The notes below the pieces were generated by a model that did not search any database, was not told the DNA's origin, and saw only the letters and a list, made by a program, of their open reading frames with translations. A stretch of 43,714 nucleotides of DNA. It comes from Selenomonas sp. (GTDB lineage Bacteria > Bacillota > Negativicutes > Selenomonadales > Selenomonadaceae). Below are positions 138 through 43,714 of this stretch, piece by piece; the first letter of the stretch is position 1; the number at the start of each line of letters is the position of its first letter. The stretch covers positions 1 through 43,714 of the forward strand of contig JALEZZ010000067.1 in the NCBI GenBank assembly GCA_022773585.1, in the 5' to 3' direction. The translations under genes and the position numbers were made by a program.

Positions 138-1988
138 GAAATCTAGGCAAATGTCGAAAGCCAGCGCCAGAATCTTTCAGGCTGGGTCGCAGCGCATACG
201 CGCGTCGCAGAGGATGCAGCCGCGCATATGGGCGCACTCGATGATGCTTCGGGCGTGCCGTCGGTGGACGAAATCCAGCCGTCGAAGGACGAGATGCTGC
301 TCGGCCTGACGGTCGGCCGCGAAGACGGCCATGTCGTGAGCTATCCGTCCGGCGACCTGACGGGCAAGCTCGTCCCGTCGGAGCGTTCCTGGTACAAGGA
401 CGCGAAGGCGACGGGCAAGACGCTTTATACGGATCCGTACGTCGACAAGATCACGAACAAGCTCTGCGTCTCGATTGCCGTGCCATACTATAAGAAGGAT
501 GGTGCCTTCGGCGGTGCCGTCTGCGAGGACATCTCGCTCGAGCGTCTCGACGACTATATCGAAAAGCTGAACTACAAGGGCGAGGGCATGGGCACGATCA
601 TCACGCCGTCCGGCAAGGTGGTCGCCTCGAAAGACCCTGCTTTGCAGGACAAGGACGTCAAGGACGTCCCGGGCCTCGACAAGCAGTTTGACGAGATGGT
701 GAAGAATGGTTCGGGCACGCTGACGCAGAACGTCGGCGGCGAGAACATGGTCATCTCGTATGCGACGGTCGATGGCACGAACTGGATCATGCTGCTGACG
801 GTGCCGGAGAGCTTCGTCTACAGCGAGCTCACGACGATGAAGATTGCATTCGCCATCGTGACAATCATCGGCCTCATCGTCATCATGGTCATCTGCCAGA
901 TGTTCGCGCGCCGCATCACGGAGCCGGTCGTGCTGCTCAAGGAGCGCGCCGAGCTGCTGGCGGGCGGCGACCTGCGGTCGGAAGGCATCGTCGTGGATTC
1001 GAGCGACGAGCTCGGCGACCTCGCGCATGCATTTGACGCGATGACGAAGAACCTGCGGGAGCTCATCGGCAATGTGGCGAACACGTCGGATCAGGTCGCG
1101 GCGTCGTCCGAACAGCTCACGGCGAGCTCGCAGCAGTCGGCGCAGGCAAATGAAAGCGTCGCGCAGACCATCGTCGATGTCGCAAATGGCATGGAAGCGC
1201 AGCTCACGAGCATTGATGGCGTGAAGGAAAGCGTCGATAATGTCGACGGGCAGGTGCTCGAGACGACAGCGCGCGCGCAGGGCGTCTCCGAGCGCTCGGC
1301 CGATACGGCGGATGCCGCAAAGCACGGCCAGAGCCTCATGGAAAGCTCTGTCACGAAGATGGAGGAAATCGAGAAGAGCGTCAACGAGACGGCCGACGTC
1401 ATGGACATGCTCGGCAAGAACTCGAAGGAAATCGGCGCCATCGTCGAGACCATCAGCGGCATCGCCGAGCAGACGAACCTCTTAGCGCTCAATGCGGCCA
1501 TCGAAGCAGCGCGTGCCGGCGAGGCAGGCCGCGGCTTCTCCGTCGTTGCCGACGAAGTCCGCAAGCTCGCCGAAGAGTCGCAGCAGGCGGCCAGCGAAAT
1601 CGAGGAGCGCATCGGCGCCATCCAGAGAGATACAGAACAGGCAGTCGAGAGGATGCAGGCAGGCCGCGGCCGCGTGCAGGAAGGCACCGAAGCCATCCGC
1701 AAGGTCGGCGCGGAGTTCCAGAGCATCATGGACAAGATTGCCCAGACGAATGACGACATGACGGCCATCAACGAGACGATGCAGAATCTCGCGGAGGGCA
1801 CGAAGAAGATTGTCGACGTCATCGGCCAGGTCGACGAGATCAGCCGCGAGACGTCGGAGCACACGCAGACCATCAGCGCGGCGGCCGAAGAGCAGAGCGC
1901 TTCGGCCGAGGAAATCGCTTCGGCATCGCAGTCGCTCGCCAAACTCGCGGCAAAGCTGCAGGAAGCGACGAAGAAGTTCAAAGTCTGA
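138..1988 (+). pseudogene. Methyl-accepting chemotaxis protein, 5' end removed by the IS
   Basis: A chemoreceptor paralogous to the next two genes. Homology starts at base 138 (codons for E-I, then stop TAG at 144-146, then A-N-V-E-S), equivalent to residue 40 of the downstream receptor. TM1 and the first extracellular residues are therefore missing, and the codon matching Ser/Thr in the paralogues is TAG. An ATG at 228 opens a 586-residue frame with most of a dCache_1 domain (R-x-W-Y motif at about 390-400), TM2 (about 835-905), HAMP, and the full cytoplasmic signalling domain with the [19 protein letters not shown] tip near 1468-1525. No ribosome binding site is evident before 228. Without TM1 the sensor domain would lie in the cytoplasm, so I treat it as non-functional. 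A truncated cytosolic signalling protein is possible but less likely. The 5' part may lie beyond the IS. Confidence 0.85.
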
Positions 1989-2029
1989 AGAATCTGCTGC
2001 CAAGAATTTCATACGACATTCGCAAAGAC

Positions 2030-2063
2030 GCGAGACCGTGCTATCTTCACGGTCTCGCTTTTT
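2030..2063 (+). terminator. Intrinsic terminator after the broken chemoreceptor
   Basis: A perfect 11-bp stem, GCGAGACCGTG with CACGGTCTCGC, encloses a 7-nt loop and is followed by five T residues. It separates the first chemoreceptor from the second. Confidence 0.9.
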
Positions 2064-2114
2064 ATATAGATAGAGAGAAATAAAAGGAAACCAAAAGGAA
2101 GGAATGGATTCACT

Positions 2115-4082
2115 ATGGGGATTCGAAAGAAATTCTTGCTTCTGACGGTTGTGGTCGGTGTCTTGCTCGCGCTTGTCTCCGGCCTCGGCTATTTCATGGC
2201 GTATCGCGCGCTTGATGCAAGTATCCAGGATGAGATTTCGGCGAGCATGGAGGCCGAGCGTCAGAAACTCTCTGGATGGGTCGCGGAGCACACGCGCATT
2301 GCGGAAGACCTCGCTGCACATGCAGCTGCGATGGATGAGGCGGTCGGAAAACCGACGCCGGGGATGATCCAGTTCGCGAAGGATGACATGATCCTCGACA
2401 TTACGCTCGGGCGCGAAGACGATTACGCGATTGGCGCCAAGGATGGCAACCTCACAGGAGAATTCTTCCCGACGACGCGCGATTGGTACAAGGATGCAAA
2501 GGCGCAGGGCAAGACGATTTATACCGATCCGTACATTGATGCTACGACGAAGAAACTCTGCGTCTCCATCGCCGTGCCGTATTATCGTGCAGATGGCAGT
2601 TTTTCCGGTGCAATCTGCGAAGATGTCCTCCTGACGACATTGGATGATTATGTATCAGAGCTCAAGTACAAGGGAGAAGGCAAAGGCAAGATTCTCAGTG
2701 AAAATGGTACGGTGCTTGCGTCTGTTGATACGGAAGATAATAACAAGAAGTTCTCGGATTTTGATTATTTGAGCCGGTATTTCGATGAGATGAAGGCAAA
2801 CGGCAAGGGATTCTTTGTCACGGATGTTGATGGCACCTCGTCAGTGGTAGCCTATGCAACCGTGGATCGCGCAAATTGGATGATGGTGCTGACTGTGCCG
2901 GAATCCGTCGTTTACAGCGGCATGACGACGATGAAGATTGCGTTTGTCATTGTGACGATTCTCGGCATCCTGCTCGTCATGGGCATCTGCCAGCTGTTTG
3001 CGCGCCGCATCACGGAGCCGCTCGTGCTGCTCCGTGGCCATGCAGAGCAGCTTTCGGGCGGCGATCTCCGCGTGGATGGCTGCGGCGTGGATACGGATGA
3101 CGAACTCGGCGAGCTTGCCCGTGCCTTTGACACGATGGCAAAGAACCTGCGCGACCTCATCCACGGCGTTGCCTCGACGGCAGACCAGGTGGCTGCATCC
3201 TCGGAACAGCTGACGACGAGCTCTCAGCAGTCGGCGCAGGCGACGGAGAGCGTCGCGCAGACAATCGTCGATGTCGCGAACGGCATGGAGCAGCAGCTCA
3301 CGAGCATTGACGGCGTCAAGGGCAGCGTCGACGAGGTCGACGGGCAGGTGCTCGAGACGACGACGCGCGCGCAGGATGTTTCGGATCGCTCGTCCGATAC
3401 AGCGGATGCGGCCAAGCACGGACAGAGCCTCATGGAGAGCTCCGTCACGAAGATGGAAGAAATCGAGAAAAGCGTCAACGAGACGGCCGATGTCATGGAC
3501 ATGCTCGGCAAGAATTCAAAGGAAATCGGCGCCATCGTCGAGACCATCAGCGGCATCGCGGAGCAGACGAACCTCCTTGCGCTCAATGCGGCCATCGAGG
3601 CGGCGCGCGCAGGCGAACAGGGCCGCGGCTTCTCTGTCGTCGCCGACGAAGTTCGCAAACTCGCTGAGGAATCGCAGCAGGCCGCGAGCGAGATTGAGGA
3701 ACGCATCGGCACGATCCAGAAGGACACGCAGGCCGCCGTCGAACGGATGTCCGGCGGGCGCACGCGCGTGCAGGAAGGCACGGATGCCATCCGCAAAGTC
3801 GGCGAAGAGTTCCAGAGCATCATGGACAAGATTGCGCAGACGAATGATGACATGACGGCCATCAATGACACGATGCACGGCCTCGCGGACGGCACGAAGA
3901 AAATCGTCGGCGTCATCGGCGACATTGACAAGATCAGCCGGGAGACCTCGGAACACACGCAGACGATCAGCGCGGCGGCCGAAGAGCAGAGCGCTTCGGC
4001 CGAGGAAATCGCCACGGCCTCGCAGTCGCTCGCGAAGCTCGCACAGCAGCTGCAGGAAGCGACAAAGAAGTTCAAAGTGTAA
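2115..4082 (+). CDS. Methyl-accepting chemotaxis protein, dCache sensor
   Basis: A transmembrane chemoreceptor of 655 residues that would signal through CheW/CheA. TM1 is at about 6-30, a dCache_1 sensor domain at about 35-270, TM2 at about 273-295, HAMP at about 296-350, and the methylation and signalling domain at about 360-655 with the [19 protein letters not shown] hairpin tip. In the sensor domain R122, W124, Y125, Y140 and D170 follow the spacing of the amino-acid-binding dCache_1AA motif (one residue longer before the Asp). The position of the first motif tyrosine is phenylalanine, so amino-acid sensing is only suggested. There is no C-terminal CheR/CheB pentapeptide; the protein ends EATKKFKV. 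The start follows AAGGAAGGAATGG. Its signalling half is nearly identical to both neighbours, which indicates tandem duplication. Confidence 0.93.
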
Positions 4083-4100
4083 TCGGATATTAACGCAGAG

Positions 4101-4144
4101 GAAGTCCCGCCACGGCCAGCTGTGGCAGGACTTCTTCGTTTTTT
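4101..4144 (+). terminator. Intrinsic terminator between chemoreceptors 2 and 3
   Basis: A 13-bp stem with one mismatch, GAAGTCCCGCCAC with GTGGCAGGACTTC, followed by TTCGTTTTTT. The third receptor is therefore probably transcribed from its own promoter, which I could not identify with confidence. Confidence 0.85.
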
Positions 4145-4199
4145 GGCGAATTGTAACGCCATAGGGGAAAACCATTTTGGGGAAAGGGATGATTCATTC

Positions 4200-6170
4200 A
4201 TGGGAATCAAGAAGAAGTTTATGGCGCTGACGGGGGTTGTCGGTGTCATGCTGATCGTCGTCTCCCTGCTCGGCTATTTCATGGCGTATCGGGCGCTCGA
4301 TACGAGCATCCAGGGCGAGATCACGGCGAATATGGAAGCGCAGCGGCAGGGCGTTTCTGGCTGGGTGGCCACGCATGCACGCATCAATGAAGACCTCGCG
4401 GCGCATATGGCCGCGCTTGACGCCTTGGCGGAAAAGCCGTCGAAAGACGTCATCATGAATTCAAAAGATGACATGGTGCTCGACATCACCGTCGCACGCG
4501 AGGCGGACAATTACGTCGTCGCAACGCTCGAAGGCGACCTCACGGGCAAGCTGATCCCGAACGATCGTCCATGGTATCGCGATGCAAAGGCGGCCGGCAA
4601 GACGATTTATACAGATCCATACGTTGCGAAGAGCACAGGACAGACGTGCATCTCGTTCGCGACGCCGTATTACAAGGTGGACGGTTCCTTTGCAGGCGCC
4701 ATCTGCGAAGACATCTCGCTCGCGAGCATGAATGACTATGTCGAGCAGCTCAACTACAAGGGCGAGGGCGTCGGTACCATCATCACGCCATCGGGCAAGA
4801 TCATCGCTTCGAAAGATGAGGAGCTCAGCAACAAGGACATCGCAGATGTTCCGGGACTCAGCGCGCATTTCGATGAAATGGTGAAGAATGGCAAGGGCTC
4901 GTTTACGGACAATGTCAATGGGACTTCGACGGTCGTGACGTATTCGACGGTCGATGGCGCGGGCTGGATCATGGTGCTGGCCGTGCCGGAGAGCGTTGTC
5001 TATGCGGAAATGACGACGATGAAAATCGCGTTCGCCGTCGTGACGATTCTCGGCATCATCTTCATCCTCGGCGTCTGCCGCGTCTTCGCGGGCCGCATCA
5101 CGGGCCCGATTGCCGTACTCAAGGCGCACGCGGAAGAGCTTTCGCAGGGCAATCTTCGCATGGATGACTGCGCCGTCGATTCTGACGATGAGCTCGGCGA
5201 CCTCGCGAATGCCTTTGATACGATGGCAAAGAATCTGCGCGATTTCCTGAAGAATGTCACGGAGACGTCCGACCAGGTCGCGGCGGCCTCGGAAGAGCTC
5301 ACGGCAAGCTCGCAGCAGTCGGCGCAGGCGACGGAGAGCGTCGCGCAGACGATTGTCGATGTCGCGAACGGCATGGAAGAACAGCTGTCGAGCATCGACG
5401 GTGTCAAGGAAAATGTGGACAACGTCGACGGGCAGGTGCTCGAAACGACGGCGCGCGCGCAGGGCGTTTCCGACCGCTCGGCCGATACGGCTCAGGCCGC
5501 AAAACATGGCCAGGAACTCATGGAGAGCTCGGTCGCGAAGATGGAAGAAATCGAGCGGAACGTCAACCAGACGGCTGATGTCATGGACACGCTCGGCAAG
5601 AATTCGAAGGAAATCGGCACGATGGTCGAGACGATTTCGAGCATCGCCGAGCAGACGAATCTCTTGGCGCTCAATGCGGCCATCGAGGCGGCCCGTGCGG
5701 GCGAACAGGGACGCGGCTTCTCCGTCGTCGCCGACGAAGTCCGCAAGCTCGCCGAGGAATCGCAGCAGGCGGCTGGCGAGATTGAGGAACGCATCGCCGT
5801 CATCCAGAAGGATACGGAACAGGCCGTCGCACGCATGCAGGCAGGCCGCGGCCGCGTGCAGGAAGGCACGGAGGCCATCCGCAAAGTCGGCGAGGAGTTC
5901 CAGAGCATCATGGACAAGATTGCGCAGACGAACGACGATATGACGGCCATCAATGACACGATGCACGGCCTCGCAGACGGCACGAAGCAGATTGTCGGCG
6001 TCATCGGCAACATCGACGAAATCAGCCGCCAGACGTCGGAGCACACGCAGACCATCAGCGCGGCGGCCGAAGAGCAGAGCGCTTCGGCGACGGAAATCGC
6101 CACAGCGTCGCAGTCGCTCGCGAAACTCGCGCAGCAGCTGCAGGACGCAACGAAGAAATTCAAGGTCTGA
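4200..6170 (+). CDS. Methyl-accepting chemotaxis protein, dCache sensor
   Basis: The third tandem chemoreceptor, 656 residues, same architecture as its neighbour: TM1 about 7-30, dCache_1 domain about 35-270, TM2 about 273-297, HAMP, then the signalling domain with the conserved [19 protein letters not shown] tip. The ATG at 4200 is chosen because it follows GGGGAAAGGGATGATT and gives the same MGIKKKF start as the paralogue. An in-frame ATG at 4122 lies inside the preceding terminator hairpin and is unlikely. The sensor keeps the R-x-W-Y and TDPY motifs but differs from its neighbour across the pocket region, for example [11 protein letters not shown] against [11 protein letters not shown], so the ligand may differ. 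Confidence 0.93.
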
Positions 6171-6208
6171 GGCTGGAAGGCTGAAGTTTTAAAGGGGGAC
6201 ATTATTCC

Positions 6209-6967
6209 ATGGCAAAGTATGCATTGATCACGGGCGCATCGAGCGGCATCGGACGCGCGACAGCATTTGCGCTGGCGAAGAAAGGCTATGACCTCGTTAT
6301 CGCGAGCCGCAATCTTGAAAAGCTCGAAGCCGTGAAGAAAGAAGTCGAAGCGGCAGAGCATGTCGCCGTGACGCCCATCGTGCTCGACGTCACGGACACG
6401 GCGGCCATCCATCAGGTGACGTCTGTCGTGCTCGAGAAATTCGGCGCACCGGACGTGCTCGTCAATGACGCGGGCCTCGCGCGCGGCCTCGAGCCGTATG
6501 CGGAGACGGACGAAGAAGACATCCTTGAGATGATCGATACGAACATCAAGGGGCTCTTCCTCGTCACGCACGATTTTCTGCCAGCGATGGTGAAGCGCAA
6601 TTCCGGCCATATCGTAAACCTCGGCTCGACGGCAGGGCTCTATGCCTATGCGGGTGCGGCCGTCTACTGCGCGTCGAAAGCCGCCGTCAAGACATTTTCC
6701 GACGGCATCCGCATCGACCTCATGGCGACGGATGTCAAGGTCACGACGATCCAGCCGGGCATGGTCGAGACGCCGTTCTCAGAAGTCCGCTTCCACGGCG
6801 ACAAGGCGCGGGCGGCGAATGTCTACAAGGGCATCGAAGCGCTGACGCCGGAAGACATCGCCGATACGATCGCCTACGTCGTCGACACGCCGCGCCGCAT
6901 GCAGGTCAGCGACGTCGTCATCCTCGCGAACCAGCAGGGGACGGGATTCCTGGCGCATAAAGAGTAA
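6209..6967 (+). CDS. Short-chain dehydrogenase/reductase
   Basis: A 252-residue classical SDR of the YdfG-like (NADP-dependent 3-hydroxy acid dehydrogenase) type. The nucleotide-binding motif TGASSGIG is at 8-15 and the catalytic set is S140, Y153 and K157 (YCASK). The structural motif usually written NNAG reads NDAG at 86-89, a minor variant. S33-R34 after the second strand (IASRN) is typical of NADP preference. The start follows AAAGGGGGAC. The gene is 38 bp downstream of the third chemoreceptor with no terminator between, so some read-through is possible, but no functional link is evident. The substrate cannot be told from sequence. Confidence 0.9.
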   Translation: MAKYALITGASSGIGRATAFALAKKGYDLVIASRNLEKLEAVKKEVEAAEHVAVTPIVLDVTDTAAIHQVTSVVLEKFGAPDVLVNDAGLARGLEPYAETDEEDILEMIDTNIKGLFLVTHDFLPAMVKRNSGHIVNLGSTAGLYAYAGAAVYCASKAAVKTFSDGIRIDLMATDVKVTTIQPGMVETPFSEVRFHGDKARAANVYKGIEALTPEDIADTIAYVVDTPRRMQVSDVVILANQQGTGFLAHKE

Positions 6968-6973
6968 AGACAG

Positions 6974-7036
6974 AAAAGCCGTGACTTTCACGGTGCGATT
7001 CGATGTCGCACCCGCGGAAGTCACGGCTTTCTTTTT
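6974..7036 (+). terminator. Intrinsic terminator after the SDR gene
   Basis: Long hairpin with outer arms AAAGCCGTGACTT and AAGTCACGGCTTT and an inner arm pair GGTGCGA/TCGCACC, followed by CTTTTTG. The opposite strand is also T-rich after the stem, so it may serve the convergent deacetylase gene as well. Confidence 0.85.
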
Positions 7037-7049
7037 GCTTTGACATACA

Positions 7050-7098
7050 GGGGACTCCCCCAGTCAGCTTTGCTGACAGCCCCCTCAACGAGGGGGCC
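7050..7098 (-). repeat. Dispersed palindromic repeat, copy 1
   Basis: The reverse complement reads GGCCCCCTCGTTGAGGGGG, CTGTCAGCAAAGCTGAC, then TGGGGGAGTCCC. It holds two nested hairpins and closely matches the block at 39624-39668 (GGCCCCCTCTCCGAGGGGG, CTGTCAGCGAAGCTGAC, TGGGGGTG). It lies between two convergent transcription units and has no coding potential. It looks like one member of a genome-wide REP-like family. Confidence 0.8.
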
Positions 7099-7110
7099 AG
7101 AGAAGATGGA

Positions 7111-7965
7111 TTACGGGACGATGATGAAACTTGCCAGTGTCGGATGATCTTTGCGGAGGTCCATTTTGATCTTGTTGAGCGGCGCGAAGAGCGGCGCGAA
7201 CGTCAGGCGGAGCTTGAAGCGCGCGAGCGTGTGGCTGTTGCTGCCGAAAATCGGGACGCGGTCGAGGATGAACGGATCCTCGCCGGGTTCGGCGAGACCG
7301 TAGTTGACGGTGAAGGCGGCACGGTAGCCAGCGTCCTTCGTTGCCTGCTCGATGTCCGCATCGTATTCGCCGCAAGGATAGGCGATGAAATTCACCTGCT
7401 TGCCGAGGTTCCACTCGATGGCCTGCTTCGAGCCGATGAGCTGGTGTTTCGCTTCGTCGAGGCTCGGTGCCTTCGTGAGTTCCTCATGCGAGAGCGTATG
7501 GCTTTCGAAGTCGATGAGGCCGCTTTCCTGCATGTCCTGCACAGCGCTCCACGTCAGGTAATTCGGATACGTGTTGACGTAATCGGAAATCAGGAAGATT
7601 GTTGCCTTGAGCTGATACTTCTCGAGAATGGGGAACGCGTGGTTGTAGTTGTCGAGATAGCCGTCGTCAAACGTGATGATGACAGGCTTTTCGGGAAGCT
7701 TTGTGCCGTTTTCCCAAGCATCGAGCATGTCAGCGGGCGTGATGGTCGTGTAGCCGTTTTCTGAGAGGTACTTCATCTGCGCCTCGAACTGCTCCGTGTT
7801 GACGGTCAGCGCGTTCTTTTCCGTGTCGTTGATCTGGTGGTAGTTCAGCACGGGGATGCCGTCTTTCGCGGATTGGAACAGCGAACCAATGAAGAGGGCT
7901 GCGGCGATGACGAGCGCAACAGCTGCGGCAAGCAGCCATTTGCAATGCTTTCGCAAGGGAAACAC
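7111..7965 (-). CDS. Membrane-anchored polysaccharide deacetylase (NodB fold)
   Basis: A carbohydrate esterase 4 type deacetylase of 284 residues, expected on the outer face of the inner membrane. A basic start and a single hydrophobic segment (about 10-30) act as an uncleaved anchor. The NodB domain shows TFDDGY with the metal-binding aspartates D100 and D101, and the histidine pair H156 and H160 in SHTLSH. Substrates in this family are N-acetylated glycans such as peptidoglycan or poly-GlcNAc; which one applies here is unknown. The start is GTG at 7963-7965 with AAAGGA almost touching it. A TTG three codons further in gives better spacing and could be the true start. No ATG fits. A consensus promoter lies upstream at 8025-8053. 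Confidence 0.9.
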   Translation of the reverse strand: MFPLRKHCKWLLAAAVALVIAAALFIGSLFQSAKDGIPVLNYHQINDTEKNALTVNTEQFEAQMKYLSENGYTTITPADMLDAWENGTKLPEKPVIITFDDGYLDNYNHAFPILEKYQLKATIFLISDYVNTYPNYLTWSAVQDMQESGLIDFESHTLSHEELTKAPSLDEAKHQLIGSKQAIEWNLGKQVNFIAYPCGEYDADIEQATKDAGYRAAFTVNYGLAEPGEDPFILDRVPIFGSNSHTLARFKLRLTFAPLFAPLNKIKMDLRKDHPTLASFIIVP

Positions 7966-8024
7966 ATCCTTTTTCTGTCAAAATGCGATGAAATCCAGAT
8001 AGTTTTCAGTTTGCCATAGCAACT

Positions 8025-8053
8025 AATATATTACAACGAACCATGGCTGTCAA
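8025..8053 (-). promoter_or_regulatory. Promoter of the polysaccharide deacetylase
   Basis: On the - strand TTGACA (8048-8053) is followed after exactly 17 bp by TATATT (8025-8030). It points to the deacetylase and leaves a leader of about 55 nt. Confidence 0.7.
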
Positions 8054-8128
8054 GGAATCTTTCCGTTCTGTGCCATGAACAATTGGGAATCCGATGGAAA
8101 CACTCTTTTTTCGTTGGGGAAACTATGG

Positions 8129-8134
8129 TATCAT
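8129..8134 (+). promoter_or_regulatory. Possible extended -10 for the metallophosphatase
   Basis: TGGTATCAT fits an extended -10 (TG-N-TATNAT) 25 bp before the start codon at 8160. There is no recognisable -35 box, only a T-rich stretch, so this is tentative. Confidence 0.35.
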
Positions 8135-8159
8135 AAAGGCGTGCAGAGGGGGTGCAGCC

Positions 8160-8888
8160 ATGTCATATCGGCGGATTCTGGCCATCGGGGATATTCATGG
8201 GAACTTCCGGAAATTCCTGACGCTCTGGCGGCAGCTGGCGTTTGATGGGACGCGGGAAATCGCCATCTTCCTCGGCGACTATACGGATCGCGGGCCGGAG
8301 AGCCGCGAGGTCATGTCCTGGGTGATGGAGCATTTCCATCGGCAGGGGTTCGTGTTCCTGCGCGGCAACCATGACGAGATGATGCTTGCGGCCTGTCTCG
8401 GCATCGAGAAAAATCTCTGGCTGCAGAACGGCGGCCGCACGACGGTCGAGAGCCTGCGCGCCTTGGAGAAAAGCGATGCCGATGACTTTCTGACGCGATG
8501 GGCGAAGACGATCCGCGAGATGAAGCTTTGCTATGAAGTCCTCCAGGACGGACAGCCGTACTGGTTCATGCATGCAGGCATCCGGCCTGGCGTGCCGCTC
8601 GCGGAGCAGGAGGAAGAGACGCTGCTCTGGGATCGTGACTTTGCAATGGCGGACACGTATGATGGCGCGCCTGTCGTGACGGTCGGCCATACGCCTGTGC
8701 CGTATCTTTCCATCGATGGGTCGGTGATCCCTCCAATCGCAGCACATCCGCTGATTCTCGACGACGGCCGCCGCATCCTCGTCGATACGGGCGGCTTTTT
8801 GCCGAAGGGGCGCATCTCGGCTGTCGATGTGCTGACGAAGCGATATTGGCGGTCGAAGCTGCTGCCGGAAGAAAGAGGTTTGGCGTGA
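8160..8888 (+). CDS. Metallophosphatase, PPP family (Ser/Thr protein phosphatase type)
   Basis: A 242-residue calcineurin-like phosphoesterase. All PPP metal-site blocks are present: GDIHGN (about 11-16), GDYTDRGPES (about 40-49), GNHDE (about 72-76), a MHAGIRPG histidine and VGHTPVP near the end. This fits the bacterial phosphoprotein phosphatase / symmetrical Ap4A hydrolase-like branch; substrate is not deducible. The ATG at 8160 is preferred because it follows AGAGGGGGTGCAGCC and is just before the conserved MSYRRILAIGDIHG. An in-frame ATG at 8094 would add 22 unconserved residues. The stop overlaps the GTG that begins the decayed hydrolase, suggesting the two were once translationally coupled. 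Confidence 0.9.
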   Translation: MSYRRILAIGDIHGNFRKFLTLWRQLAFDGTREIAIFLGDYTDRGPESREVMSWVMEHFHRQGFVFLRGNHDEMMLAACLGIEKNLWLQNGGRTTVESLRALEKSDADDFLTRWAKTIREMKLCYEVLQDGQPYWFMHAGIRPGVPLAEQEEETLLWDRDFAMADTYDGAPVVTVGHTPVPYLSIDGSVIPPIAAHPLILDDGRRILVDTGGFLPKGRISAVDVLTKRYWRSKLLPEERGLA

Positions 8889-9256
8889 AGATTTCAAGAC
8901 GGGAATTTCTCTTGGGAGGTGCTGGCATCTACAGCGATGTGGAAGTTCCTGTTTGGCGACAAGTCAAAGCTCACGCCTGCGCGGCCATTGATTTCGCAGA
9001 AGACGGATCTTTTTTCGCTGCCCCGTGATGAGGACGTCGTTGTCTGGATGGGGCATTCGAATTTCTACCTGCAGCTCGGCGGGCGGCGCATCCTGATCGA
9101 TCCGAGTGAAAAACATCGTCTGCCAGCTCGGCGTCGGCGAATACTTCGAGCAGTGGGGATTTGATGCAGAGAAGATTCACGAAGAGGACTTTGGAAGAAA
9201 ATTCGGCGGATGCAAAAACGGCTGACTTCCATCCGTGGTGGCAGCAGATGACATGA
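8885..9256 (+). pseudogene. Decayed MBL-fold metal-dependent hydrolase
   Basis: Fragments of a metallo-beta-lactamase-fold (UlaG-like) hydrolase can be read in order but not in one frame. From the GTG at 8885 comes KISRREFLLGGAGI, a twin-arginine-like start. After a frame change comes MWKFLFGDKSKLTPARPL through VVVWMGHSNFYLQLGGRR and ILIDP (ending near 9105). Then, with no intervening sequence, NIVCQLGVGEYFEQWGFDAE follows (about 9112-9170), which in this family lies well downstream, and finally ADFHPWWQQM to a stop at 9254-9256. The segment that should hold the HxHxDH metal site is gone. I see at least two internal deletions plus frame changes, so the gene is dead. The GTG overlaps the stop of the phosphatase gene. 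Confidence 0.75.
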
Positions 9257-9293
9257 GGCATGGACATTTTTACATAAAATATCCATTTCCCTG

Positions 9294-9322
9294 TTGACAA
9301 ACGACAGGAAAAGCGTAATAAT
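9294..9322 (+). promoter_or_regulatory. Promoter of the ilv-leu cluster
   Basis: TTGACA at 9294-9299, a 17-bp spacer, then AATAAT at 9317-9322. It sits 51 bp before the ilvN start. The leader has no obvious terminator or T-box, so transcriptional attenuation ahead of ilvN is not supported. Confidence 0.85.
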
Positions 9323-9373
9323 GTATACAATGTTTACAGACTTACACGCAAACGTCACGGGAGGAAGCACAGA

Positions 9374-9910
9374 ATGGACATGAAACATGTGTTGTCTGTC
9401 TTTGTCGAAAACCAGACGGGCGTGCTCGTGCGGGTTGTGAGCATGTTTTCCAGGCGGGAGTTCAACATCGACAGCTTGTCGGTGGGCGTCACGGAATCGC
9501 CGGAGTATTCGCGCATCACGATCGTGGTGCACGGGGATGAAGACCTTGTCGAGCAGATGATCAAGCAGCTCGAGAAGATGCCGGTCGTGCGCGGCGTGGA
9601 ACGCCTGGATCCCGAAGTCGCTGTATGCCGCGGGCTGACGATGATCAAGGTGCGCGCGGATGATTCGAACCGGCTCGATGTTTTGAAGATGGCGGAGCTT
9701 TTCCGGGCTCATGTCGTCGATGTCAAGCCGCAGACGCTGATTTTCGAGATTACGGGAGACGATGACAAGGTCACGGCCTTGCTGCAGCTCCTGAAACCGT
9801 ACGGAATCAGCGAAGTCATCCGGACGGGCCTCGTCGCGCTGGAGCGCGGAGAACATACGATTTATGAACATTGTGAGGAGAGAGAGTATTATGGCAAAAA
9901 CTTACTATGA
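9374..9910 (+). CDS. ilvN: Acetolactate synthase small (regulatory) subunit
   Basis: Regulatory subunit of acetohydroxyacid synthase, the first common enzyme of valine, leucine and isoleucine synthesis. It binds the large subunit and confers valine feedback inhibition. The 178-residue protein has an N-terminal ACT domain (about 4-78, starting [18 protein letters not shown]) and the second conserved domain (about 80-160), a normal length for the family (usually 160-175) with a slightly extended tail. The start follows GGGAGGAAGCACAG. It overlaps ilvC by 20 bp. The catalytic partner ilvB is not adjacent but is the last gene of the same cluster, about 4 kb downstream. Confidence 0.95.
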
Positions 9911-10904
9911 TCAGGATGCAGATCTCGAGATGCTCGCTGGCAAGACCGTTGCTGTCATCGGCTACGGCAGCCAGGGCCATGCCCATGCACTGAACCTCAA
10001 GGACAGCGGCGTCAACGTCGTCGTCGGCCTCTATGAGGGCTCGAAGTCCAAGGCAAAGGCAGAGGCTCATGGCCTTACGGTCCTTCCGGTCGCTGAGGCG
10101 GTCAAGAAGGCAGACATCACGATGGTCCTGATTCCGGATGAGAAGCAGGCAGATGTCTACAAGACGGAGATCGGTCCGAACCTCAAATCCGGCTCTGCTC
10201 TCGCTTTTGCACATGGTTTCAATATCCATTTCAAGCAGATTGTTCCGCCGGCTGACGTCGATGTCTTCATGGTTGCGCCGAAAGGCCCGGGTCATCTCGT
10301 CCGCCGCACGTACACGGAAGGTTCCGGCGTTCCGGATGTCTTCGCTGTGCATCAGGATGCTTCGGGCAAGTGCTTCGACATCGCGCTCGCTTATGCAAAG
10401 GCACTCGGCGGCACGCGTTCCGGCGTCCTCCAGACGACGTTCCGCGATGAGACGGAAGAAGACCTCTTCGGCGAGCAGTGCGTGCTGATGGGCGGTCTCT
10501 GCCAGCTCATGAAGACGGGCTTCGAAGTCCTCGTCGAGGCAGGCTATCCGCCAGAGATGGCATATTTCGAGTGCTTCCACGAGATGAAGCTCATCGTCGA
10601 CCTCTGCTACGAGGGCGGCATCACGAAGATGGTACAGTCGTGCTCCGACACGGCAGAGTATGGCAGCTATGTCATCGGCCCGCGCATCATCACGGAAGAT
10701 ACGAAGAAGGAAATGAAGAAGTGCCTGCATGAAATCCAGGATGGCACGTTCGCCACGAAGTGGCTGCAGGAGAACCGTGCGGGCGGCCGTGCGAACTTCC
10801 TCGCAATGCGCCGTCTCGCGCAGGAGCATCCGATCGAAAAGGTCGGTGCCGAGCTCCGTCAGATGATGCCGTGGCTGCGTGACAAGAAAGACCTCACGTT
10901 CTGA
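9891..10904 (+). CDS. ilvC: Ketol-acid reductoisomerase
   Basis: Converts acetolactate or acetohydroxybutyrate to the dihydroxy acid with NAD(P)H and Mg2+, the second step of branched-chain amino acid synthesis. The 337-residue length is that of the class I (short) enzyme. The Rossmann motif [12 protein letters not shown] lies at about 24-35, and the C-terminal knotted domain has the metal-ligand region [12 protein letters not shown] and the [12 protein letters not shown] motif. ATG 9891 is chosen for its GAGGAGAGAG site and the standard [15 protein letters not shown] start. It overlaps the end of ilvN, so the two are co-translated. Confidence 0.97.
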
Positions 10905-23683: not shown

Positions 23684-23712
23684 TTTACGGGGGGGGACTT
23701 TCCTTTTATAAT
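23684..23712 (+). promoter_or_regulatory. Promoter with a G8 tract in its spacer, copy 1
   Basis: TTTACG (23684-23689), then TATAAT (23707-23712) with a 17-bp spacer. The last base of the -35 box and the next seven form an uninterrupted run of eight G (23689-23696). The block ATTTTTGTCTTTAC-G(n)-ACTT recurs at 30582-30605 with seven G. A change in G number would shift the spacer away from 17. Confidence 0.75.
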
Positions 23713-23759: not shown

Positions 23760-25139
23760 GTGGTAGAAGTGTCTGGAGCCGGAGAGATCTGGCAGAAAAT
23801 GCGCGCGCTTTATGCACGGGCAGCAGAGACGAAGTTCATCAATACGTCAGAGATTGCAGCAGAGCTCGAGCCGCTGTTTGAGAAGCATGGCTACCGGAAA
23901 CACGCAGAGGGAGAGCCGTTGCGCATCCTGCTGCTCCACGATGACGGCGTCGGCGACTTCATCAACTGCTCGCCAGCCATTCGCGAAGTCCGTCGCGCGT
24001 ATCCGGATGCGTATATCACGCTGGTTGTTTTTCGGCCGGGCTATGCGATGGCGGTGACATGTCCGTATGTTGACCAGGTGATTGCCGATGAGCGGAAGTG
24101 CGACTGGAACGATCCGCTCGCGCTCTTCGAGTGGTACGCCAGATTGGCACAGAAGCTTCTGCCGATGCATTTTGACCTGTCGTTTCATTTTACGGTCTAT
24201 GGAAGCCTGGTTCTGCTGTCGTATCTGTCGGGCGCGGCTCGACGGATTGGCTATGCGCCTGAGCATGGGATGCTGCCGGGCCCATTTCCGCTGGGGGCCG
24301 TGCGCGGCTTTGTGACGGATGCTGTCCCGACGATTCCTCGTGGGACGCATTCGGTGTATCGCTATCTGCCGCTCATTGAATCGCTCACGGGAAAGGAAAC
24401 GGAGGATTGCCGTCCGGAAATCTGGACGCTCGCACAGGAGACGGAGCGGTGGCGGGTTCAGCTCGGAAAAGCAGCGCCTGACGCGCTCTGGATTGCCGTG
24501 GCCATCGGCTCGACGGACGGGCGGCGCCACTATCCGGCGGCTTCGTATGCCGAGCTTTTCCAGCACATCCTCGAAGTGGAAGCACGCGACGTCCGGTTCC
24601 TGCTCCTCGGCGGCCCAGGCGACCGGGCGGATGGCGAGGTGCTTGCGGGCGCACTGCCGGAGCAGCGGGTATGGAACGCGGTCGGACAGATGAGCTATCG
24701 CGGTTCTGCGGCGGCGCTCAGCTGCTGCCGTCTCTATATCGGGAATGATACGGGCCTCATGCATGCGGCAGCGGCGTCCCGCCTCCCCGTGCTCACGCCG
24801 TGCTGCTATCCTGCCGACCGGCCGATGGTCACGAACGCCGTGCCCATTGTGCACTATCCCTATGGCGTGCCGGCCGTCCTCGTCCGTCCGGCGCATGCCC
24901 TGCCAGAGTGCCAGGACTCGGATGACATCTGGGGCTGTGCCATGAAGCGCCCGCACTGTATCACGCAGATTACGCCCGACTTGATGCTGCGCGGCTATCG
25001 CCTCCTGAACGAATTGATCCGGCAGGGGAGAAGCGAACTTTTCTGCATTTACGAGATGGAGAATCCGACGCATGACGGCAGAGTGACAGCGGTCGAGCAT
25101 CTCGATGTGGACACTTTTGAAACAATTGCTGAGAAATAA
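23760..25139 (+). CDS. Glycosyltransferase family 9-like protein
   Basis: A 459-residue GT-B fold enzyme related to ADP-heptose:LPS heptosyltransferases. After about 50 N-terminal residues the first Rossmann half begins RILLLHDDGVGDFINCSPAI, matching the GT9 start GxGDxxxxxPAxxxLR. The second half holds AIGSTDGRRHYPAASYAEL and FLLLGGPGDRADG, then the family hallmark YIGNDTGLMHAAAA, close to the donor site. A role in cell-surface glycan assembly is inferred; donor and acceptor are unknown. Start GTG 23760 follows AAGGGGAAGTTCCATC. It is a single-gene unit behind the poly-G promoter. Confidence 0.85.
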   Translation: MVEVSGAGEIWQKMRALYARAAETKFINTSEIAAELEPLFEKHGYRKHAEGEPLRILLLHDDGVGDFINCSPAIREVRRAYPDAYITLVVFRPGYAMAVTCPYVDQVIADERKCDWNDPLALFEWYARLAQKLLPMHFDLSFHFTVYGSLVLLSYLSGAARRIGYAPEHGMLPGPFPLGAVRGFVTDAVPTIPRGTHSVYRYLPLIESLTGKETEDCRPEIWTLAQETERWRVQLGKAAPDALWIAVAIGSTDGRRHYPAASYAELFQHILEVEARDVRFLLLGGPGDRADGEVLAGALPEQRVWNAVGQMSYRGSAAALSCCRLYIGNDTGLMHAAAASRLPVLTPCCYPADRPMVTNAVPIVHYPYGVPAVLVRPAHALPECQDSDDIWGCAMKRPHCITQITPDLMLRGYRLLNELIRQGRSELFCIYEMENPTHDGRVTAVEHLDVDTFETIAEK

Positions 25140-30559: not shown

Positions 30560-30589
30560 ATTATTGTGCACATAAAACGAATTTTTGTC

Positions 30590-30617
30590 TTTACGGGGGG
30601 GACTTGCCTGTTATAGT
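30590..30617 (+). promoter_or_regulatory. Promoter with a G7 tract in its spacer, copy 2
   Basis: TTTACG (30590-30595), 16-bp spacer, TATAGT (30612-30617). Seven G run from 30595 to 30601. The flank ATTTTTGTCTTTAC and the ACTT after the G run are identical to those at 23676-23700. The spacer is one base shorter than in copy 1, matching its one fewer G. Confidence 0.75.
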
Positions 30618-30670
30618 AGAAGTATCGCAGCAATTCCGTGCGAGAAATCTATGACAGGAGCGTGCATGAT

Positions 30671-32200
30671 ATGTCAGAACCCGTGAAATATATCGTTGTC
30701 CAGGCAGGCGGGCGCGGGAGCCGGATGGAGATCCTGACGCGGAACAAGCCGAAGGCGCTCGTCCCCGTGGAGAACCTGCCGATGCTGTTCCACCTGTTCC
30801 GGAAATATCCGGAGGCGCATTTCGTCGTCATCGGCGATTATCGGTACGACGTCCTCGCGAAGTATCTGAAGAGCTTTGCCGATGCATATGACTATGAGCT
30901 CGTCCATGCATCTGGCGCGAAGGGGACGTGCGCCGGCCTTGCGGAAGCGCTGCAGCGCGTGCCCGCGCATACGCCATTCTTCCTGATCTGGTGCGACCTG
31001 CTGCTTTCGAAGGATTGGCAGATGCCTGCCGCCGATGCAGACTACGTCGGCATCGCAGATGGCTTCTCCTGCCGCTGGAAATTCGAAGACGGGCACTTCG
31101 TAGAAGAACGGAGCAGCACGCATGGCGTGGCGGGCGCGTTCGTGTTCCAGGAGAAGGAGCGCCTCGCGGGACTTCCCGCAGAGGGGGAATTCGTCCGCTA
31201 TCTCGCGGAATCCCGCCATGCATTCCAGGAAATGAAGCTGATGGGGGCGCGGGAATACGGCCATTACAGCGACTGGGAGAAGCTGCCGCGCATGAAGTGG
31301 CGTCCGTTCAACCGTCTGGAAGTCCGCGGCGACCGCGTGACGAAGATGGGCATCGACGCGCAGGGCATCGCACTCGGCAAGCGGGAATCGAACTGGTATC
31401 GGAAGCTTGCGGGCTCGACGTTCCAGAACCTGCCGCACATCTATGGATACGAGCCGCTCGAGATGGAATGGATCGATGGCAAGAACATCTACGAGTATTC
31501 ATACCTGCCGGAGGAGCAGAAGAAGCGCATCCTCTCGGAAATCATCGGCTGCCTGAAGTCCCTGCATGCGCTCGGCAGCGTGCCGGCGGACGAAGCGAGC
31601 TACCGGCAGGCGTATCTCGGCAAGACGTATGACCGTCTGGCGAAAGTGCGCGACCTCGTGCCGTTTGCCAATGACGAAACCATCGTCATCAACGGCAAGC
31701 GCTGCCGCAACATCTTCTTCCAGCAGGAAGAGGTGGAGAGGCGTGTCCTGCGCTATCAGCCGGAGCAGTTCGTCTTCCTGCATGGCGATCCGACGTTCAG
31801 CAACATGATGCTGCGCCATGACACGGAGCCCGTCCTCATCGATCCGCGCGGCTATTTCGGCACGACGGAAATCTATGGTGATGCGGCGTATGACTGGGTC
31901 AAGCTCTACTATTCGCTCGTGAGCAACTATGACCAGTTCAACTTGAAGCGCTTCGCGCTCGACATCCGGGAGGATTTCGTGGATCTTCGGATGGCGTCGA
32001 ACAATTGGGAAGACATGGAAGATGAATTCTTCCATCTGCTCGATGGTGACGTGACGCGGCCGCAGATGAAGCTGCTGCTCGCGCTGACGTGGCTCTCGCT
32101 GACGACGTACGCATGGGAAGATTATGATTCCATCTGCGGGGCGTTCTATGAGGGCGTGTATCTGCTGGAGGAAGCGCTGGAAATGGAGGAAGAGGCATGA
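30671..32200 (+). CDS. Nucleotidyltransferase fused to an APH/choline-kinase-like phosphotransferase
   Basis: A 509-residue two-domain protein. Residues about 5-235 form a sugar/choline-phosphate nucleotidyltransferase of the MobA/LicC type (VQAGGRGSRM at about 10-19, then NKPKALVPV with the substrate lysine). Residues about 260-505 form an aminoglycoside phosphotransferase/choline kinase fold with the catalytic HGDPTFSNMML (about 370-380) and metal-binding VLIDPRGYFG. One polypeptide could thus phosphorylate a small alcohol or sugar and activate it with a nucleotide, as separate LicA and LicC do for choline; the substrate is unknown. ATG 30671 follows ACAGGAGCGTGCATGAT. It overlaps the next gene by 4 bp (ATGA). 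Confidence 0.8.
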   Translation: MSEPVKYIVVQAGGRGSRMEILTRNKPKALVPVENLPMLFHLFRKYPEAHFVVIGDYRYDVLAKYLKSFADAYDYELVHASGAKGTCAGLAEALQRVPAHTPFFLIWCDLLLSKDWQMPAADADYVGIADGFSCRWKFEDGHFVEERSSTHGVAGAFVFQEKERLAGLPAEGEFVRYLAESRHAFQEMKLMGAREYGHYSDWEKLPRMKWRPFNRLEVRGDRVTKMGIDAQGIALGKRESNWYRKLAGSTFQNLPHIYGYEPLEMEWIDGKNIYEYSYLPEEQKKRILSEIIGCLKSLHALGSVPADEASYRQAYLGKTYDRLAKVRDLVPFANDETIVINGKRCRNIFFQQEEVERRVLRYQPEQFVFLHGDPTFSNMMLRHDTEPVLIDPRGYFGTTEIYGDAAYDWVKLYYSLVSNYDQFNLKRFALDIREDFVDLRMASNNWEDMEDEFFHLLDGDVTRPQMKLLLALTWLSLTTYAWEDYDSICGAFYEGVYLLEEALEMEEEA

Positions 32201-39808: not shown

Positions 39809-40085
39809 AGAAGTTTGCAGGCCTCCTCGCTTACCTTGATGACATTGATCCCCCAACGGGGGAGGCTTGGTTTGATGTGCTGCTGTGGGAAAACAAAACA
39901 CGACGAAAACGGAAAAATTTCCGACTTGGAAGTTCGTCCGTTTCTTATTTTCTGCATTTCGTGCCACGTTTGCGCTATGACGCCGGATTTTATGGTATGA
40001 TAGCGGTGTGAGAGAAGGAACTGCTGCGAAGAGGAGCCTCCCCAAGGGGGGAGGCTTCAAGGGAAATTCAAGGGAGTGGGACATC

Positions 40086-43000
40086 ATGAAACGGGCATAC
40101 AAACCAAATAACTTCTATCCGCACACGAAGGCGGAGCGGGCGCTGAGGGCGGCGGTGCTGGCGTCCTGCACGGTCGGCGCGACGCTGGCACTCGGTGCTG
40201 CCCCCCCCGTGCTGGACGGATGCCCTCGGTGTAGAGATTGGCGCGAGCGTCGCACATGCGGAGACGGCAGACGGCGAATACAAGGTGATTGATGTTTCTG
40301 GCTGGGGAAACTCATGGCAATATTTCAAAAACGATGGGGAAGTCAAGCTTGTCAAAGGCGGCACGGTGCTTGCTACGTTCACAGCGCCGAAGGCCAATGA
40401 TTTAGAGCCATCGGCATGGCTTTCCTATTCGTCAGAGGGTCCCGCGAACGGGACAATCACCATGGCTAATCGTCGTATCGACGACGTGACGATCTACGAG
40501 AATACGAAGTTGAAATGCGCGCTCTATACAAATCCCTATAGTCCGGTAACCTTGAAAGGTGAGGGAGCGTCCATCAGTGTGTTCGAAAACGAGTATAAAG
40601 CCACGCTCGCGGCGGGCAGCGCGGAAGCAACACTTTCGTTTGATGATATGCACGCGAATTGTTGGGATCTCACGGGCACGGACGGCACGAAGCTCTCTGG
40701 CGAGGTTGGGAATTATATGCTCTACGGCATGGTAGACATCAGCGACGTCTCCAAATCGACGTATACAGCGCATGTTGGTCCCAATGCCACCGTCAAGACG
40801 GCGCAAGGCACGATCCATGGTGCTTCGGAATACAAGTGGAACAATTTTCTTGTTGATGGTGACACGACCACGATTTGGAACGGGACGTTTGGCGATATCG
40901 AGAAGACGGGAAACGGCAAGCTGGTTGTTCGGAACGAGAATGAGGCATGGGACTTGACAGCAGGAAACATCACGGCGGATGAAGTTATTACTGCAGGAAA
41001 TGTCACGGCAAACTCCATCATGGCGGACGAGGTCAGTGGTAAAAATGTCTCGGTCACGGACACGCTTTCTGTTGCAAAAGAACTGAACGTGGATACGGTC
41101 ACTGCTTCGACCGTCATTCTTGCCAGCGGCGCAAGTGTGAGCGGGCAGAAGGGCGGCACGTCGAACATCAAAACGAACATGCTGCAAGTCGATCCGGCGA
41201 CTGCTGCAACCGCTCTTGCGAATGCGACGGTCGCAGCAAAGACCGAGGGCGGCACGGTCAACATCACGAATTTGGCGGGCCTCAAGATTCCAGATGCGAC
41301 GCTCGCCAAAATCGCTACGGCTGCGAAATTGAGTGAGGGCGGTTATACTTCCGCGACGACGGGAGACACGAAGAAGAACGTGACGGAAATGCTCGACAAA
41401 GCCGACCAGCTGGGCAAAGGCACGACCACCACGAAGCTGCAGGACGGCACCGATGCGGTCGCCTATGAACATACTTACACCAGCACGACCAATGCCGGCA
41501 CCGCGACGGTCACGACGACAGGCACGGTAACATCGGATGGCACCACTCCCGTCCTGAACGTCGATACGCAGAACTATACGTTCGATCTTTCCAAGGACGC
41601 GAAGGACAAGGACACGTTCCTTACGTCCACAAACCCGGGAACGACGACCATCCATGGTGCGGAAGTGAAGGTCAAAGCCGACAACAGCCAACTGCTTTCC
41701 CTCAACAAGGGAGAGTCCGTCACGTTGCTGAATGACGAAGCTGGCACGCTCGCGTATGATGGCACGAGCACGTTCGACCACAAATACACGAATTCCGCCG
41801 GCACCGCCACCGTCCGGACGACGGGCACGGTGCAGGCTGTGGACAACGACCTCATCCTGCGCATTGACGGCGCGGATTATGCGTTCACGCTCAACTCCGC
41901 TACGACGGCGGACGGCTATACATTCCTCACGTCTGCGAACACGGGGGAAACGAAGATTGACGCCGAGGACGTGACGCTCGACGACAGCAAACTTGCCAAT
42001 CAGATGCTTTCCCTCAACAAGGACGACAAGGTCTATCTGCTGAAAAACGACACGGCGGGCACGCTCGCTTATACCGATGCCAGCGGCGCAAAAGAGCTGA
42101 ACCACACCTACGAAAACAGCACCGACGCAGGAACCGCCACGGTCACAACGCATGCCAAAGTAGAGGCAAGCGGCAACGACCTCGTCCTGAATGTCGATAG
42201 TGTGAAGTATGCGTTCACGCTCGCACCGACCGTGAAGAACGAAGACACGCTCCTCGAACTTTCAAACGCAGGAGAAACGAAAATCAGCAACGGCGACGTG
42301 ACCGTGAAAACCAGCGGCGTCCTGAAAAAACTCAAACAGGGCGAAAAAGTCTATCTGCTCAAGAAGACGAATGGCACGCTGACTGCTACGGACGTCACGT
42401 ATCTCGTCAACCTGCCCACCATCTACGGCACCATCAGGGGCAACGTGGCAGAGGATGCCAGCAACAATGCCCTCGTTCTCAATGTCATGGGTGCAGAATC
42501 CCTCACGGACAATCTCGGGGATTACAAATACATCGTCATCGTGGAAGGTGACACGAAAAACACGGGGAACGAGGTCACGGTCGGCGCAGGTGAAATTGCC
42601 GACAGGAGCGCCATCGCCGCTTTGGCAAAGGATGAGACGAATGCGACGGAGCTGACGGACAACACATTGACTGTCAACGGTACAGTGACCGGCCGTGCCG
42701 TCGGTGCGAACAGCTATGCAGGCGATGTCACGAAGAACAACGTCACGATTGGCGCTGGCGCGCTCGTGGACGGATTTGTTGCCGGCGGCATGACGCAGGA
42801 CGGGACGGCAAATGGCAATACCGTCACCATCAACGGCGGCACGATCAAGGGCGACGTCTATGGCGGCTACAGCGAGAAGGAAGCCACGAACAACATCGTC
42901 AACCTCGCTGGCGGCACGATTTTTGGAACGGTCTATGGCGGCTATGTTGCCGATACGTCCGGCACGAGCAGCAATAACACGCTGAACGTCACAGGGGCGA

Positions 43001-43714
43001 CCACGGCTGGCAACATCGCGAAGTTCGATACGTACAACTTCGAGCTCCCCGCCGAAACGAAGGCGAACGATGTCCTCCTCCATCTCACGTCGAATGCAGA
43101 TACCAACATGCAGGGCAGCACGGTCAACGTCCATGCGGATGGCAGCACGAGCCTCAAGGATGCCGAGACCGTCTACCTCATCAAGAAAGATGGCGGCAAT
43201 CTGCTCACGGACACGGCCATCAAGCAGAACGTCGATGTCCTCGTCGGCGTCACGGCAAAGCTCAATGGCACCGTGACGAACGAAAACAACAACCTCGTCC
43301 TGACGACGAAAGCCGTGCCCGTAAGCAACTCGGGCGGCGGCGGATATTTCCCGCCGAGCCCGCCGAGCACGACGAGCACGACGGAGAAAACAGAAGAGAC
43401 GAGCAGCTCGGGCAGCTCCGGCGGCTCGGGAAGTTCGGAAAGCTCCGGCAGCACGACGAAGACGACCAGCAGCAATGCTGTCACCGTTGCGGCGGACAAG
43501 ACCGTCAAGAACGCATTCGGCGCTTATTCTGCGAAACGGAATGCGCGCGTCAAGATGGCGAGAAACACGCTGACCGTCACGGGCGACGTGGAAGGCACTG
43601 CCGCTGGCGCGAGCACCGCCTCTGGCGACGTCGCGCAGAACACCGTCACGGTGGCGGAGGGCGCAACGATCAGCGAGAACGTCTATGGCGCTCGGACGGA
43701 GGACGGCGCGGCAG
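40086..43714 (+). CDS. Large exported repeat protein, split frame at a C8 tract, cut by the window end
   Basis: ATG 40086 (after AGGGAGTGGGACATC) starts an extended signal peptide, MKRAYKPNNFYPHTKAERAL followed by a hydrophobic stretch ending LALGAA, as in autotransporter-type surface proteins. At 40201-40208 there are eight C. As written the frame then ends at 40292. The +1 frame continues without a stop from 40201 to the window end (about 1170 codons) beginning CWTDALGVEIGASVAHAETA. Seven C would join the two. The body is rich in Thr, Asn, Asp and Gly, with about three 100-residue repeats (about 41476-42400), beta-helix-like segments (NNTVTINGG, GDVYGGYSEK) and a Gly/Ser/Pro/Thr linker (43321-43470). 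No translocator or anchor domain is reached. It is probably an outer-membrane adhesin or autotransporter passenger. Confidence 0.75.
40201..40208 (+). repeat. C8 homopolymer in the signal-peptide region
   Basis: Eight consecutive C, immediately after the codons for ALGA of the signal peptide. The sequence before it is in one frame and the long body after it is in the next, so tract length decides whether the full protein is made. With 7 or 10 C the gene would be ON; with the 8 seen here it is OFF. Confidence 0.85.
41476..42400 (+). repeat. Three imperfect about 100-residue tandem repeats in the surface protein
   Basis: Units begin near 41476, 41786 and 42110. Each starts with an AGTATVTT or AGTATVRT type motif, then LxVD or LRID and Y-x-FTL or Y-x-FDL, DTFLTS-like, and the block LSLNKGESVTLL / LSLNKDDKVYLL / KKLKQGEKVYLL, then GTLAY or GTLTA. 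The periodicity suggests expansion by duplication, as in beta-solenoid surface passengers. Confidence 0.75.

What the first reader, a model, noticed from the sequence alone, without database searches (positions are those of the whole stretch)
40186..40300. C8 tract puts the signal peptide and the body of a giant surface protein in different frames: likely OFF phase variant
The signal peptide frame from ATG 40086 stops at 40292, while the next frame is open for about 1170 codons to the window end. The shift occurs exactly at eight C. Removing one C restores a continuous exported protein. The open body shows selection for coding, so the gene is either phase variable or very recently broken, or the sequence has a homopolymer error.
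Basis: partly seen in the sequence, partly recalled or inferred. Interest (0 to 1): 0.8.

Follow-up and report, generated by a model that had tools for sequence, protein, structure and literature searches.

The report
Surface protein switched by C tract
In a bacterium related to uncultured Selenomonas, a run of eight C's puts the predicted export signal and the body of a giant, predicted surface protein in different reading frames, likely a reversible off state, and similar runs sit in many of its predicted surface-sugar genes.

The parts
40086..40292 (+). Short frame: start codon, predicted signal-peptide region, then a stop
   Evidence: the ORF listing and sequence; signal peptide judged by eye
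40070..40076 (+). Shine-Dalgarno-like AAGGGAG upstream of ATG 40086
   Evidence: read from sequence; motif recalled; the aligned homologues have the same stretch
40201..40208 (+). C8 tract, the likely switch; C6 and C9 at the same site in two same-genus homologues
40147..43713 (+). Body frame of the predicted autotransporter passenger, open to the contig end
   Evidence: homologues; one-frame alignment
40252..40263 (+). Predicted signal-peptidase site AHA/E in the body frame, downstream of the tract
   Evidence: by eye and the aligned homologue; untested
39864..40085 (+). 5' region that aligns with those of the G003 and G001 homologues
   Evidence: DNA alignment

Best explanation
The C8 tract at 40201-40208 is likely a slipped-strand phase-variation switch inside the predicted signal-peptide region of a predicted giant autotransporter, and it stands here in an out-of-frame state. 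Shown: two frames meet at the tract, the tract length differs among homologues, and natural homologous copies exist both in frame and out of frame. Inferred: the tract gains and loses bases during replication. When out of frame, ribosomes starting at ATG 40086 would stop after 68 codons, before the predicted cleavage site is made in its own frame, so no passenger would be exported; when in frame, the passenger would be exported and displayed through a C-terminal barrel. This locus would be one of a set of G/C-tract loci in this genome that mostly affect surface-type genes.
Against: No read data, so no within-clone variation is shown. G001:C139 has an in-frame TAG and frame breaks, not all of them at long tracts. 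G000's only barrel match of this type, at the start of contig C78, has a frame break near base 265 that is not at a homopolymer; if C78 carries the 3' end of this gene, the gene has a second lesion, or the contig end is misassembled. All 7 of 7 loci with a recognised signal peptide in the genus assemblies are out of frame, where about 2 in 3 is expected (probability about 0.06). Only 4 of 7 genus genomes have a match to the signal peptide, three of them weak (E 0.01-0.07). dN/dS is 0.61-0.67, so constraint is weak. The methyltransferase tract is G8 with the same offset in both G000 and G002. The four in-frame proteins each come from a single metagenome contig.
Confidence: 0.78

Rival explanations
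1. The gene is recently and permanently broken: the tract slip is one lesion in a decaying autotransporter and will not revert.
For: Homologue G001:C139 carries a TAG and further frame breaks; the C78 barrel has a frame break away from tracts; dN/dS 0.61-0.67; 7 of 7 genus loci out of frame.
Against: The window body sits in an open frame of 1189 codons and aligns with G003 in one frame; in-frame copies exist; the tract is kept at one place at three lengths.
Confidence: 0.13
2. The tract length is an assembly or homopolymer sequencing error and the gene is in frame in the cell.
For: Single draft assembly, gene at a contig end, no reads available.
Against: Other assemblies also differ at this site; P0010 and P0033 differ in frame while the start of the body is near-identical; other tracts in the same genome are read in frame at G8-G11.
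Confidence: 0.05
3. The tract is a programmed or transcriptional slippage site that yields a small share of full-length protein without any DNA change.
For: Such tracts can slip in transcription (recalled); the methyltransferase keeps G8 and the same offset in two species.
Against: Tract length and offset are not conserved in this gene (C8, C6, C9) or in the second autotransporter class (G7-G9).
Confidence: 0.04

Closest known systems
Poly-G/C contingency loci of Campylobacter (phasome)
   Same: G/C runs of 7 or more inside reading frames, with the frame set by tract length (cut-off of 7 from passages of PMC6321876); genes for surface structures (search listings)
   Different: Found here in a Selenomonas relative; the window's tract is C on the coding strand inside a predicted signal peptide; switching not demonstrated
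Phase-variable Neisseria autotransporters such as NalP (their phase variation is recalled)
   Same: Predicted autotransporter with a homopolymeric C tract early in the gene; NalP is the top fold match for a relative's barrel
   Different: Passenger is repetitive and strand-rich, with no protease hit in Pfam; a profile of the family has no useful sequence match in the PDB
Veillonella parvula autotransporter adhesins (PMC7549365, PMC11633186: start of abstracts and term searches seen)
   Same: Diderm Firmicutes using autotransporters at the surface (abstracts in the listing)
   Different: Neither main text holds words beginning phase vari-, frameshift or homopolymer

Membership tests
Translational phase variation by a homopolymeric tract | G/C run of 7 or more inside the reading frame | tested here: met
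   C8 at 40201; cut-off from PMC6321876 passages
Translational phase variation by a homopolymeric tract | Coding frames differ on the two sides of the tract | tested here: met
Translational phase variation by a homopolymeric tract | Tract length differs between homologues | tested here: met
   C8/C6/C9; G7/G9 as the only gap in about 535 bases in a sister class
Translational phase variation by a homopolymeric tract | In-frame and out-of-frame versions both occur in nature | tested here: met
   P0004, P0005, P0009, P0010 against P0033; these are homologues from metagenome assemblies, not the window's own allele
Translational phase variation by a homopolymeric tract | Reversible, frequent switching within a clone, with a change of expression | not testable with these tools
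   needs reads and cultures
Classical autotransporter (type V secretion) | N-terminal Sec signal peptide | tested here: inconclusive
   judged by eye only
Classical autotransporter (type V secretion) | Beta-solenoid passenger | tested here: inconclusive
Classical autotransporter (type V secretion) | C-terminal translocator beta-barrel | tested here: inconclusive

The most novel reading that the evidence does not exclude
This Selenomonas lineage runs a Campylobacter-like phasome with two layers: G/C tracts inside autotransporter, glycosyltransferase, methyltransferase and acyltransferase genes that set the reading frame, and a repeated promoter element (TGTCTT, a G7-G8 run, then a TAnnnT box 9-10 bases on) before flagellin and glycan genes, so that a diderm Firmicute reshuffles its whole surface by slippage.
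Probability: 0.6. Interest if true: 0.75.

Novelty: new member of a known kind. Interest (0 to 1): 0.58.

Why it matters
Tract-based phase variation is mostly described in host-adapted pathogens of other phyla (recalled, and the tenor of the listings). A large set in a diderm Firmicute whose named relatives are uncultured Selenomonas-type bacteria would suggest that phage, grazing or community pressure also selects such switches, and could explain why surface genes of these bacteria look broken in assemblies. It also gives a directly testable list of loci.

Full report
What is there. The window is the whole of contig C9 of a 2.77 Mb draft genome of 94 contigs. ATG 40086, with a Shine-Dalgarno-like AAGGGAG nine bases upstream (by eye), opens a 68-codon frame that begins like an extended signal peptide and stops at 40292. 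The body frame is open from 40147 to the contig end. The two are open together for 146 nt, and C8 at 40201-40208 lies in that overlap. It is the only + strand C run of 6 or more in the window. Runs of 8 or more G or C number 2, against 0.5 in dinucleotide shuffles, so abundance alone is only mildly unusual; the place is the point.

The body is a real gene. A search of 41 genomes found the body or relatives in 14, its own included, best in the same genus. Translated in one frame, the body aligns with the G003 homologue over 723 columns, 388 of 666 aligned residues identical, with 20 gap runs and no frame break. dN/dS is 0.61 over 523 codons, 0.67 over the first 275, and 0.66 over 87 codons for G003 against G001, so constraint is present but weak. 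That RUG stands for rumen uncultured genome is recalled.

The tract varies. In an alignment of the 5' regions, the window has C8, G003:C176 has C6 and G001:C139 has C9 at one site in alignable flanks, and all three are out of frame. A second class of autotransporter-type genes in G001-G003 has a G run of 7 to 9 about 100 codons in; its 4 loci seen here are out of frame too. Two of them, G002:C38 (G7) and G001:C182 (G9), align over about 535 bases with the 2-base tract difference as the only gap; further on the alignment has more gaps. So 7 of 7 genus loci with a recognised signal peptide are out of frame, where two in three would be expected by chance. The window's signal peptide itself has no other copy in G000.

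Natural copies in both states. Of 32 database proteins related to the body (only the 7994 best candidates were scored), P0004, P0005, P0009 and P0010 run from a signal peptide straight into this kind of body, and P0032 starts with a signal peptide of the second class. A second search drawing on P0009 residues 1-300 gave 19 hits: these 4; P0033, whose start reads as the same signal-peptide DNA in another frame; P0014, which starts just after the junction; and 13 that start inside the body. P0010 (in frame) and P0033 (out of frame) share 148 of the first 149 residues from the junction, then diverge to 233 of 270 columns over their first 300 residues. This is the best evidence that nearly the same gene occurs in both states. 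The cautions are that these are metagenome assemblies, that each in-frame protein comes from one contig, and that they are homologues of the window gene (about 45% identical), not its own allele.

A set of such loci. The genome has 35 G/C runs of 8 or more: 13 of 9 or more and 22 of exactly 8. From frame translations I read 14 as lying inside genes. Clearly frame-shifted at the run (7): two GT2 glycosyltransferases (G10, G9), two methyltransferases (G9, G8), a GT9-like gene (G8; no Pfam hit, named by likeness to the window gene at 23760, itself named by eye), a hexapeptide transferase (G10) and the window gene (C8). In frame (6): a GT8 glycosyltransferase (G11), two methyltransferases (G8, G9), a GNAT acetyltransferase (G8), a hexapeptide transferase (G8) and an FkbM methyltransferase near its end (G8). 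One is unclear, at a contig end (G10, no hit). Eleven of the 14 have transferase Pfam hits at E 1e-3 or better; ten are over Pfam's cut-off, and one methyltransferase is under it. That these enzymes act on surface glycans is inference. In a GT2 array, the copy at G000:C14:5690 has G7 in frame, and the copy in the same place of the G001 array, C3:71584, has G12 out of frame. In the GT8 gene, G11 in G000 aligns with an interrupted G6 in G001 at 87% identity, both in frame. A methyltransferase tract is G8 with the same offset in G000 and G002, which fits slippage less well. The other 21 runs I read as lying outside genes, without annotating each; 7 of them share a promoter-like element.

Mechanism. 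Slippage at the tract would change its length during replication. Out of frame, translation would stop after 68 codons and the predicted AHA/E cleavage site of the body frame would not be made, so no passenger would be exported. In frame, the passenger would be exported. Steps shown: the frames, the tract, the length differences and the two natural states among homologues. Steps inferred: slippage, reversibility, export, function.

Known or new. Poly-G/C phase variation is well known in Campylobacter; PhasomeIt uses a cut-off of 7 and notes that all runs of 8 or more vary in strain NCTC 11168 (PMC6321876, passages). The terms Selenomonas and phase variable together gave 1 paper, on sialic acid metabolism (listing only). 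Searches showed no title about phase variation in this group among those listed; the library holds openly licensed papers only, and long hit lists were cut. Two Veillonella parvula autotransporter papers hold none of the terms phase vari-, frameshift or homopolymer, and the tract survey PMC2831843 does not name Veillonella or Selenomonas.

Noticed in passing
window 23684-23712 (before gene 23760-25139) and 30586-30617 (before gene 30638-32200): Promoter-like element: TGTCTT, G8 or G7, then a TAnnnT box. In G000 the same element stands before genes that by eye read as a flagellin (L072), a GT2 (L081) and two methyltransferases (L076, L085). In the TTTACG type, G8 copies have a 17-base spacer and G7 copies 16.
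   Followed up: partly
L094 (G000:C78) 1-936: Autotransporter barrel at a contig start with a frame break near base 265, not at a homopolymer; possibly the 3' end of the window gene.
   Followed up: partly
L058 (G000:C14) 2836-10183: Array of GT2-like paralogues, two of them shifted at G10 and G9, one in frame at G7, one without a tract.
   Followed up: partly
68 distinct G/C runs of 7 or more in held loci: CAGAYG lies just after the run in 7 of 68, against 0.29 expected from flank shuffles, in unlike genes; some of the 7 are homologues, so the excess is inflated.
   Followed up: partly
G061, another genus of the family: 88 G/C runs of 9 or more, the highest count among the 121 genomes tallied.
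   Followed up: no
window 228-6170: Three tandem paralogous genes that read like methyl-accepting chemotaxis receptors (by eye).
   Followed up: no
P0008 772-791: Weak hit, under cut-off, to the NCBIfam LOFI repeat protein model (Campy_LoFi_RPT, E 0.00043).
   Followed up: no
window 40086-40200: The window's signal peptide resembles those of the G-tract autotransporter class (46% to G002:C171, E 0.013) more than that of its body homologues, so the N-terminus may have been exchanged.
   Followed up: no
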